DNA of 64,000 nucleotides from Lysobacter sp. KIS68-7. Lineage in GTDB: Bacteria; Pseudomonadota; Gammaproteobacteria; Xanthomonadales; Xanthomonadaceae. The DNA lies in contig NZ_CP089925.1 in NCBI RefSeq assembly GCF_021284745.1, positions 1,983,001-2,047,000 on the forward strand, given 5' to 3'. The notes under the pieces are model-generated. The model ran no database searches. It worked only from the letters and a program-made list of their open reading frames with translations, and was not told the DNA's origin. Position numbers and translations under genes: made by a program. Positions 14,059-15,912 of this stretch are shown here, one piece after another. Within the stretch, counting starts at the first letter, position 1; each line of letters opens with the position of its first letter.

Positions 14059-14337
14059 TCAGCGTGGCGGGGATGGTGGCACGGGATCGTGCCCGCCGGG
14101 GTGCAGGGGATGGCAACGCGCGATGCGCCTGGCCGCGAGCCAGCCGCCGCGCACGGCGCCGAAGCGCGCGATGGCTTCCATCGCGTATTCCGAACACGTG
14201 GGCACGAAACGGCACCGCGGACCGAGCAGCGGGCTGATCCAGCGCTTGTACAGGCGCAGGGAACCGATGAGGAAGCGATCGATCACCGATTGCGCAAACG
14301 TGGCCTGTCGAACGGTCTTTCGCGGGTTGCCGGCCAT
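14059..14337 (-). CDS. yidD: Membrane protein insertion efficiency factor YidD
   Basis: A 92-residue protein with the YidD core [29 protein letters not shown]. YidD is a small membrane-associated protein assisting insertion by YidC. The ATG at 14337 gives about 16 residues ahead of the usual start region; a GTG at codon 18 would give the more typical length. It lies upstream of pyrC (20 bases) on the same strand, away from the usual rnpA-yidC context. Its start overlaps the -35 region of the divergent DksA-like promoter. Confidence 0.85.
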
Positions 14338-14355: not shown

Positions 14356-14396
14356 AGCGCGCTTTCCCGCCTCAAGGGAACGAGGACGCAGCGCTC

Positions 14397-15518
14397 GTGG
14401 CAGCGAAGAAACCAGCGAAGAAGGCCGCCAAGGCCGCGAAGAAGGCCACCCCGGCGAAGAAGCCCGTTGCGAAGGCGGCGGCGAAGAAGCCGGTGGCGAA
14501 GAAAGTCGCCAAGCCTGCGGCGAAGAAGCCCGTGAGCAAGCCCGTGGCGAAGAAGGCAGTGCCGGCGAAGAAGCCTGCCGCCAAGCCCGTCGCGAAGAAG
14601 GCCGCGCCTGTCAAAAAAGCCGTGCCCGCCAAGAAGGCGGCGCCGGTGAAGAAGGCAGCGCCGGTCAAGAAAGCCGCGCCGCCGAAGGCCGTGCCCGCGA
14701 AGGCCGCGCCGAAGGCGATGCCTGCGAAGGCAGTGGCGAAGGCTCCGGTCGCGAAGGCGCCCGTTGCCAAGCCCGCGCCTGCGCCCGCGAAGCCCTCGGC
14801 CGTCAAGAAGCCTGCGGCGAAACCCGCAACGAAGAGCGCGCCGGTCGTGGCGCCGAAATCCGAATCCAAGCCCGTCCAGGCGTCCGCGCCGGCGGCGAAA
14901 CCCGCACAGATGCAGTCGAACGAAATCAAAACTACAAAACCCGCACTTGCAAGCGCACCGAAGCCCGCCTCCGCCGCGTCTGCCGCCGTCACGCCCCGCC
15001 CACGCCCGGCTGGCAAAGTGGCCGTGGCCGTGGCCGCCAAGCCGGCTGCTCCAGCACCGCGGGGCAAGGTGAAAGTCGTCGAATACAAGACGGATGAAGC
15101 GACAGGTCGTCCGGTCGTGCCGCAGGGTTACAAGCCCTCGAACGACGAGGAGTACATGAGCGCGCTGCAGGTGGAGTATTTCCGCCAGCGTTTGCTCGGT
15201 TGGCGTACGGACCTGGTCGAGGAGTCCAAGCAGACGATCGAGAATCTCAAGGACGAGGTGCGCGATGTCGGCGATGAGGCCGAGCGTGCGACGCGCGAGA
15301 CCGAGAATTCGCTGGAGCTGCGTACTCGCGATCGTTATCGCAAGTTGATCGGGAAGATCGATTCGACGCTGAAGCGCCTGGATGCCGGTGAGTATGGCTA
15401 CAGTGTGGATTCGGGCGAGGAGATCGGCCTGGAACGCCTCGAGGCGCGGTTGACGGCCGAGCGCACGATCGATGAGCAGGAGCGTTGGGAACATCTGCAG
15501 AAGCAGATGGGCGACTAA
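14397..15518 (+). CDS. DksA-like protein with long Lys/Ala/Pro-rich N-terminal tail
   Basis: From a GTG at 14397 this encodes 373 residues. Residues 1 to about 225 are low-complexity repeats of AKK, PAKKA and PVKKA type, like histone H1 or AlgP tails. The last 120 residues align with DksA: coiled-coil arms ([17 protein letters not shown]) and the terminal globular part ([14 protein letters not shown]). All four zinc-finger cysteines are replaced (Ser, Ser, Thr, Glu), and at the coiled-coil tip the Asp-x-x-Asp-x-Ala pattern reads Asp-x-x-Glu-x-Ala. DksA binds RNA polymerase's secondary channel; the tail may bind DNA or RNA. Whether it has DksA function is uncertain, so no symbol is given. A good promoter and terminator make it monocistronic. 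Confidence 0.85.
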
Positions 15519-15543
15519 CCTTCGTTGCTGATTGAATTGATGA

Positions 15544-15567
15544 AAGCCCCGCGAAAGCGGGGCTTTT
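15544..15567 (+). terminator. Intrinsic terminator of the DksA-like gene
   Basis: AAGCCCCGC pairs with GCGGGGCTT across a GAAA tetraloop and runs into further T, 25 bases after the stop codon. Confidence 0.9.
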
Positions 15568-15605
15568 GCTTTGGGCTGGTTTGCGCCACCCGAAGGGCGC
15601 GCTGA

Positions 15606-15691
15606 CCCGCCGCGGCGTTTGTTCCCTTTCTCCGCGGAGGGCACTTCGGGCCCGCCTTTATGCTCCGAAAGGGAACAAACGCCGCGGCGGG
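15606..15691. repeat. Perfect 25-bp inverted repeat with 36-base loop
   Basis: The 25 bases at 15606-15630 are the exact reverse complement of 15667-15691. Transcribed from either strand they would form a very stable stem. There is no adjacent T-run, the element sits beyond the real terminator at 15544-15567, and no coding frame is credible. It is in the 394-base convergent gap (15519-15912) between the DksA-like gene and the MFS gene. Confidence 0.85.
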
Positions 15692-15750
15692 CCATCGCGC
15701 TCGCCATGCGAGCGTCCGCGCGAAGCCCAACGCAACTTCATCCGGCCGGC

Positions 15751-15868
15751 GGTCCGCTTCCCACCAAAAGAATCCCGACCCTCACTCGGCAGACCCTCCA
15801 TGGCCACCGAGCTCGGATCGTTGCCCATCCATGGGCAACTCCCGGGATTCTTTTGGCGGGAATCGGAC
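15751..15868. repeat. Imperfect 26-bp inverted repeat with 66-base spacer
   Basis: Positions 15751-15776 match the reverse complement of 15843-15868 at 24 of 26 bases. The spacer holds smaller palindromes around CCATGG. This is the second inverted repeat in the same gap; apart from the terminator and these repeats I see nothing else in 15519-15912. It may be a remnant of a miniature transposable or REP-type element. Confidence 0.8.
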
Positions 15869-15912
15869 CTTCGCTGCGATTTGGGGAAGGCACCGCTTCG
15901 GTGGATAAGAGC

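What the first reader, a model, noticed from the sequence alone, without database searches (positions are those of the whole stretch)
14397..15518. Cysteine-less DksA with a histone-H1-like tail
About 225 residues of Lys/Ala/Pro repeats precede a DksA-like domain that lacks all four zinc cysteines and has Glu in place of the second tip Asp. The protein could target an RNA-polymerase regulator to DNA, or be a chromatin-like protein that reuses a DksA fold. Standard annotation would simply name it DksA.
Basis: partly seen in the sequence, partly recalled or inferred. Interest (0 to 1): 0.55.

Follow-up and report, generated by a model that had tools for sequence, protein, structure and literature searches.

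The report
Zinc-free DksA with histone-like tail
This is the bacterium's only copy of DksA, a protein that tunes RNA polymerase during starvation; here it has lost its zinc-binding cysteines and carries a long positively charged tail like that of histone H1, which may hold it near DNA, an idea that remains to be tested.

Summary
ORF 14397-15518 encodes 373 aa: a disordered Lys/Ala/Pro tail (about 200 aa), a linker of about 45 aa, and a DksA domain with none of the four zinc cysteines and a DxxExA tip. The implied setting, an odd paralogue beside a canonical DksA, is wrong: it is the only gene over the DksA cut-off in the complete genome. Its features belong to the lineage and look stepwise. 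In the sampled sequences cysteines fall from 4 (best-scoring DksAs elsewhere in the class) to 2 or 1 (order), 1 (much of the family, Xanthomonas included) and 0 (this genus, many Luteimonas). The tip Glu is in 143 of 144 sampled order rows. The tail is present or absent family by family, and similar tails occur on some 4-Cys DksAs. In Xanthomonas euvesicatoria, published peptides and mutagenesis indicate translation from an upstream GTG, so such a tail is made. An X. citri dksA deletion shares virulence defects with loss of (p)ppGpp; that this gene is the tailed orthologue is inferred. Best reading: the housekeeping DksA, zinc-independent, with an AlgP/PhaF-like polycation that probably tethers it to DNA; the tether is inferred. 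New variant of a known kind.

The parts
14382..14386 (+). Shine-Dalgarno-like GAGGA, 10 nt before the GTG start
   Evidence: Sequence; 76 of 80 named orthologues have an AAGG/AGGA/GAGG/GGAG 4-mer within 18 nt of the predicted start.
14397..15518 (+). dksA orthologue, 373 aa, GTG start
   Evidence: TIGR02420 over cut-off; only such gene in the genome.
14397..14996 (+). Histone-H1-like Lys/Ala/Pro tail, residues 1-200, predicted disordered
   Evidence: Composition; AlphaFold2 block pLDDT 40-47 over residues 1-220 and no secondary structure there; tail in 88 of 88 same-family rows.
14997..15131 (+). Linker, residues 201-245, conserved among close relatives
   Evidence: Column conservation over 81 sequences; pLDDT 87 and 92 for residues 225-234 and 235-244 in model A1.
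15012..15032 (+). GKVAVAV motif, residues 206-212
   Evidence: Columns 85-100% conserved over 81 sequences; 74 of 81 have exact GKVAV; synonymous codons vary, which points to a constraint on protein.
15168..15380 (+). DksA_N coiled-coil domain, residues 258-328
   Evidence: PF21157 E 4.2e-27.
15273..15290 (+). Coiled-coil tip DEAERA (DxxExA), residues 293-298
   Evidence: Glu in 143 of 144 rows without the full zinc site, Asp in 31 of 31 4-Cys rows.
15402..15476 (+). Former zinc site, residues 336-360 (S, S, T, E in place of C, C, C, C)
   Evidence: Ser at 114 and Glu at 138 (E. coli numbering) occur only together.
15429..15512 (+). C-terminal helix, about residues 345-372
   Evidence: AlphaFold2 models; pLDDT of this part is 60-85, so modest.
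15542..15567 (+). Terminator-like hairpin after the gene; its 3' arm ends in a T run
   Evidence: -21.3 kcal/mol, z -4.36; the simple scanner listed no + strand terminator.
14059..14337 (-). yidD, divergent neighbour (context only)
   Evidence: PF01809 E 1.2e-30; a YidD motif lies divergently within 700 nt upstream in 70 of 80 named loci.

Best explanation
This is the housekeeping DksA of the lineage, in remodelled form. Shown here by sequence: it is the only DksA over cut-off in the genome; it has no zinc ligands; its tip is DxxExA; its tail is a basic, predicted-disordered stretch found throughout the sampled family. Inferred: the coiled coil enters the RNA polymerase secondary channel and acts with (p)ppGpp at promoters, as E. 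coli DksA does. The globular part no longer needs zinc; a Ser-Glu pair probably fills the old metal site, so function should not depend on zinc or on cysteine oxidation. The tail binds polyanions, most likely DNA, as KPAA tails of AlgP and PhaF are reported or thought to do, and raises the local concentration of DksA on the nucleoid and near transcribing polymerase. Tail sequence would matter little, charge and length more. The GKVAVAV and KVVxYKTDxATGRP linker may dock the tail base onto the globular domain or onto polymerase.
For: Only TIGR02420 hit over cut-off in the 99.97% complete genome; the other PF01258 hit is a short YbiI-like C4 protein. 194 of 198 family genomes have a match, nearly all of them one. 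R91, L95, K98 and R129 of E. coli are kept in 172-175 of 175 rows. Two RelA/SpoT hits in the genome. Foldseek's top hits are DksA 1tjl (E 2.1e-5) and, fourth, zinc-free DksA2 4ijj (8.4e-4). X. citri dksA deletion and the spoT relA double mutant both fail to cause the hypersensitive response and are impaired in virulence, restored in complemented strains (PMC6804348, passages). X. [quoted passage not shown] 4 of 4 Xanthomonas-like loci examined have an in-frame GTG exactly 147 aa from the end and a K-rich GTG start further up. A lysine-repeat pattern occurs elsewhere in the genome in TopA, UvrA and three small lysine-repeat proteins. AlgP tail fragments and KPAA peptides bind DNA according to PMC9239181 (passages).
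Against: I found no experiment on this protein or on the function of such a tail. K139 of E. coli DksA (a ppGpp contact, recalled) is Gln in 144 of 144 rows without the full zinc site, and the tip Asp is Glu in 143 of 144, so the ppGpp response may differ. A processed shorter form was seen in X. euvesicatoria, so part of the pool may lack the tail. Several order families have a related DksA with no tail (f4, f6-f10: 0 of 34 rows). The X. citri mutants are not alike in all respects: growth in XVM2 medium and flagellar and pilus genes differ between dksA and spoT relA (PMC6804348). The models are modest: pTM 0.73 for the domain, 0.28 full length with the hairpin drawn as one straight helix; Foldseek rmsd to solved DksA is about 10 angstrom and VIA-align ranks unrelated helical bundles (Z up to 9.8) above DksA chains (Z 6.8-7.8). 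That the X. citri gene is the tailed orthologue is inferred: its authors report 46.88% identity to E. coli DksA; I get 45.3% (58 of 128) for three Xanthomonas-like loci cut to 147 aa.
Confidence: 0.6

Rival explanations
1. The tail binds other polyanions, such as polyphosphate granules or RNA, rather than DNA. It would link DksA to polyphosphate or ribosomal RNA in starvation, as the H1-like AlgP associates with polyphosphate granules in Pseudomonas.
For: AlgP, with a similar repeat composition, associates with polyphosphate granules (PMC9239181, passages); lysine-rich sequences bind polyphosphate (PMC12077175, abstract start and passages). K+R of 38-80 and D+E of 0-8 per tail.
Against: The two identified enzymes of this genome with the repeat pattern, TopA and UvrA, act on DNA. 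The polyphosphate targets of PMC12077175 have three or more consecutive lysines; this tail has none (sequence). No test of polyphosphate here.
Confidence: 0.2
2. The tail is a weakly constrained low-complexity expansion, or is removed by processing, and adds little; the protein is simply a zinc-free DksA.
For: Tail pN/pS 0.28-0.55 and many length differences; processed variant of X. euvesicatoria DksA (PMC5559785); tailless relatives exist in the order.
Against: Tail in 88 of 88 rows of the family and in 13 of 13, 3 of 3, 5 of 5 and 1 of 1 rows of families f11, f2, f3 and f5; strongly basic with D+E of 0-8 in all 81 sequences compared; similar tails on some 4-Cys DksAs.
Confidence: 0.15
3. A chromatin protein that reuses a DksA fold and no longer acts on RNA polymerase.
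For: Loss of all four cysteines, altered tip residue and an H1-like tail.
Against: It is the only DksA; residues shared with E. coli DksA are kept; the domain is under strong constraint, pN/pS 0.05-0.11; DksA homologues without the zinc finger function like DksA elsewhere (PMC9239242, passages).
Confidence: 0.05

Closest known systems
E. coli DksA (1TJL)
   Same: Same core; 46% identity over 121 residues; TIGR02420 family.
   Different: Four zinc cysteines, DxxDxA tip, K139, no basic tail.
Pseudomonas aeruginosa DksA2 (4IJJ)
   Same: Zinc-free globular domain; can replace DksA1 (PMC9213440, passages).
   Different: Two cysteines left, expressed only in zinc starvation as an extra paralogue, tip DxxDxA in the alignment.
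Rhodobacter sphaeroides RSP2654 and Sinorhizobium SMc00469
   Same: DksA homologues without the C4 zinc finger that function like DksA (PMC9239242, passages).
   Different: Not compared by sequence here.
Xanthomonas DksA (XAC2358; XCV dksA)
   Same: Probable orthologue: Xanthomonas-like loci have one cysteine, DxxExA and the tail.
   Different: Keeps one cysteine; described in print as having a zinc finger (PMC6804348).
AlgP and PhaF of Pseudomonas
   Same: K/P/A-repeat disordered domain of similar make-up; AlgP repeats bind DNA, PhaF is thought to (PMC9239181, passages).
   Different: Repeat domain is C-terminal and sits on other domains.

Membership tests
DksA family (TIGR02420) | Score over the curated cut-off of 115.5 bits | tested here: met
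   129.7 bits, 132.7 in the genome search.
DksA family (TIGR02420) | N-terminal coiled-coil domain PF21157 | tested here: met
   94.6 bits against a cut-off of 27, residues 258-328, full profile.
DksA family (TIGR02420) | Binds RNA polymerase and acts with ppGpp | not testable with these tools
   Only residue conservation and a relative's mutant (PMC6804348).
E. coli-type C4 DksA (not filed here) | Four zinc-binding cysteines (PF01258) | tested here: not met
   0 of 4 cysteines; 16.5 bits against a cut-off of 24.9.
E. coli-type C4 DksA (not filed here) | DxxDxA tip motif | tested here: not met
   DxxExA.
DksA2-type zinc-independent DksA | DksA fold without zinc | tested here: inconclusive
   Ligands absent and Foldseek hit to 4ijj E 8.4e-4, but the model is modest and zinc content is unmeasured.
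Histone H1-like protein families (PF07382 HC2) | Match to the family profile | tested here: not met
   No PF07382 match listed at E up to 1; the resemblance is in composition only.

The most novel reading that the evidence does not exclude
In Xanthomonadaceae and sister families DksA is no longer a freely diffusing secondary-channel factor but one anchored to the nucleoid by its own H1-like tail, so that its access to RNA polymerase is set by chromosome compaction; the same solution evolved separately on 4-Cys DksAs of other families in the class.
Probability: 0.3. Interest if true: 0.7.

Novelty: new variant of a known kind. Interest (0 to 1): 0.45.

Why it matters
Textbook DksA is small, zinc-bound and diffusible, and its cysteines are reported as a thiol switch in Salmonella (cited title; rest recalled). 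In a lineage that includes plant pathogens and biocontrol bacteria it is zinc-free or cysteine-poor and carries an H1-like polycation. That limits transfer of E. coli and Salmonella models, questions the published zinc-finger description for Xanthomonas, and makes testable whether DNA tethering changes how a secondary-channel factor works.

Tried and rejected
Rejected: (a) A second canonical DksA in the genome: searches with PF01258, TIGR02420 and PF21157 found no other gene over the last two cut-offs; the only other PF01258 gene is a short YbiI-like C4 protein. (b) An internal ribosome start at the GKVAVAV island: codon choice there roughly follows background usage, so the constraint looks like one on protein. 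(c) A frame artefact: pN/pS below 1 in 8 of 8 pairs. The absence of stops alone says little: in the first 600 nt frame 2 has none either, frame 1 has two. (d) Promoter by sigma-70 consensus: none found. (e) Fold search as proof of fold: DksA chains reach only Z 6.8-7.8 in VIA-align, under unrelated helical bundles at up to 9.8, so the fold claim rests on sequence. (f) Literature: searches (listings seen; one search returned none) showed no paper whose title or shown abstract start treats an H1-like tail on DksA. The library is open-access only, so this is weak.

Dropped rows: L032 (duplicate of the window) and L179 (second, distant match in G210) were left out of the counts; L001 and L033 (YbiI-like) did not enter the alignment. 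L077 counts as tailed by my rule (12 K and 12 A in 60 aa) although its 491-residue frame looks non-genuine. Thirteen named loci were put into the table but not into its tree.

Full report
What is there. The frame 14397-15518 starts with GTG after GAGGA and encodes 373 residues. Residues 1-214 contain 72 Ala, 52 Lys, 38 Pro, 24 Val, 2 Glu and no Asp. AlphaFold2 gives block pLDDT 40-47 and no secondary structure over residues 1-220. The DksA part matches TIGR02420 at 129.7 bits (cut-off 115.5) and PF21157 at E 4.2e-27, but the zinc-finger model PF01258 scores only 16.5 against 24.9. All four cysteines are replaced (S, S, T, E) and the tip reads DxxExA. A strong hairpin follows the gene at 15542-15567, and yidD lies divergently upstream, as in 70 of 80 named loci by motif. 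The closest named relatives of the domain are Lysobacter lactosilyticus (98%), L. dokdonensis (97%) and L. gilvus (96%) among the 80 loci returned by a capped scan.

It is the only DksA. The genome (one contig, 99.97% complete) holds one gene over the TIGR02420 cut-off, this one, and one over the PF21157 cut-off, again this one. The other PF01258 hit is a short C4 protein resembling E. coli YbiI (the name is recalled), with 12.1 bits to TIGR02420. A search of 198 family genomes found a match in 194, and in 178 of 179 of good quality; the listing shows one match per genome except G023 with three. With the TIGR02420 profile two family genomes, G051 and G179, show two matches, which I did not examine. 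The four misses are G080, G142, G150 and G186; three are 71-86% complete, G150 is rated 99%.

The features are lineage-wide in the sample and look stepwise. I aligned 175 sequences: the 30 best scorers each chosen to spread over genera and families, 24 of the 25 loci, and E. coli. This is not a random sample; above all the rows from outside the order were the best scorers of the DksA profile, so they say nothing on how common zinc-free forms are there. States at the four cysteine sites are CCCC 31, CTCA 37, CTSA 23, CTTA 56, CSTA 3, SSTE 25. All CCCC rows lie outside the order, and they are one side of a branch with support 99 in a FastTree tree. Among 80 named loci CTTA is 41, SSTE 37, CSTA 2. 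Ser at 114 and Glu at 138 occur together in 62 rows, and neither occurs in the other 193 rows of the two sets. The sets overlap and the rows are related, so this is not a test; but the two sites share one metal in E. coli DksA (recalled), so a Ser-Glu contact in the empty site is likely. Glu at tip position 74 is in 143 of 144 rows without the full zinc site; Asp in 31 of 31 with it. K139 is Gln in 144 of 144 of the former and Lys in 30 of 31 of the latter (one gap). R91 is kept in 175 of 175, R129 in 174, L95 in 174 and K98 in 172. The roles of these residues are recalled.

The tail goes by family. By a rule of 12 Lys and 12 Ala in some 60-residue stretch, it is present in 88 of 88 rows of the window's family, 13 of 13 of f11, 5 of 5 of f3, 3 of 3 of f2 and 1 of 1 of f5, and absent in 18 of 18 of f7, 8 of 8 of f9, 3 of 3 of f8, 2 of 2 of f4, 2 of 2 of f10 and 1 of 1 of f6. 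Fourteen of 31 four-Cys rows also pass the rule, in nine families, one of them doubtful (L077); those rows were best scorers, so the share is not an estimate. Such tails may well have arisen more than once; the tree needs 9 changes of tail state, though many of its forks are unresolved. In 81 close sequences tails are 161-240 residues (without the last 27 of the linker), with 38-80 K+R and 0-8 D+E. Predicted starts are GTG in 75 and TTG in 5 of 80 named loci.

Constraint. Over 8 pairs the tail has pN/pS of 0.28-0.55, the linker 0.07-0.28 and the domain 0.05-0.11; synonymous differences are high, so these are rough. The motif GKVAVAV at 206-212 has columns 85-100% conserved over 81 close sequences; 74 of 81 have exact GKVAV and the other seven are close variants. 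Codons there vary about as elsewhere in the genes, so it looks like a protein constraint. It is not a trait of the whole family: several deeper family rows lack it, and outside the family only L037 shows it among the rows printed. Its role is unknown.

Evidence from relatives. For X. euvesicatoria, DksA annotated at 147 aa was detected over 256 aa; start-codon mutagenesis indicated the first GTG as the most likely start, and a processed variant was seen (PMC5559785; passages and one section read). Four of four Xanthomonas-like loci of genus g7 that I examined have an in-frame GTG 147 codons from the end and a K-rich GTG start at 367-379 codons. X. citri dksA (XAC2358) is required for virulence and the hypersensitive response; the spoT relA double mutant also fails to cause that response and is reduced in virulence, and complemented strains recover (PMC6804348; passages read). 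The two mutants differ in growth in XVM2 medium and in flagellar and pilus gene expression. The authors describe a C-terminal zinc finger, which the Xanthomonas-like sequences (one cysteine of four) do not support. The identity they report, 46.88%, is near but not equal to the 45.3% that I get.

Structure. The domain model (159 residues, 52 close sequences) has pLDDT 81 and pTM 0.73, with a two-helix hairpin and a C-terminal helix. Foldseek puts E. coli DksA chains first (E 2.1e-5) and zinc-free DksA2 fourth, but with rmsd near 10 angstrom, so the relative placing of parts is not reliable. VIA-align gives DksA chains Z 6.8-7.8, below unrelated helical bundles. The full-length model is poor (pTM 0.28) and draws the hairpin as one helix.

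What the tail may do. The pattern KK(A/P)(A/V)KK occurs 16 times in the genome, in six genes: this one, topoisomerase I, UvrA and three small lysine-repeat proteins; the reversed control pattern occurs once. The small proteins are H1-like by composition: one matches HC2 and a Burkholderia H1-like model below their cut-offs, two match no profile. Where the carrier is identified (two genes) it acts on DNA. AlgP tail fragments and KPAA peptides are reported to bind DNA, PhaF is thought to, and AlgP associates with polyphosphate granules (PMC9239181, passages). I therefore favour DNA tethering, with polyphosphate or RNA as the main rival.

Verdict. A real, conserved, remodelled DksA: zinc-free, DxxExA, with an H1-like tail whose counterpart is made in at least one relative. 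It belongs to the DksA family by profile; the zinc-finger label does not fit. The core finding is a lineage trait of a known protein, so the interest is moderate; the tail's function is the open and testable part.

Noticed in passing
window 15597-15700: Inverted repeat with 34-nt arms (94% complementary, 36 nt apart) just after the gene; the same 17-mer pair occurs once more, about 17 kb away at G000:C1:1981340-1981409.
   Followed up: partly
window 15751-15869: Second inverted repeat, 27-nt arms, 93% complementary, 65 nt apart.
   Followed up: no
L262, L267, L273, L268, L272 (own genome at about 196, 694, 2880, 817 and 2084 kb): Three small lysine-repeat proteins that are H1-like by composition, and lysine-repeat C-terminal tails on topoisomerase I and, shorter, on UvrA.
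   Followed up: partly
L073, L075, L076, L083, L084, L087, L089, L090, L091, L092: Four-cysteine DksAs of other families in the class also carry K/A-rich N-terminal tails before a normal DksA domain.
   Followed up: partly
L145, L147, L148, L150, L152, L153, L174: Order family f11: an internal Met (mostly SSM) sits between the basic tail and the domain in these rows and could be a second start giving a short DksA.
   Followed up: no
window 15012-15032: The GKVAVAV motif between tail and domain is highly conserved among close relatives but of unknown role.
   Followed up: partly
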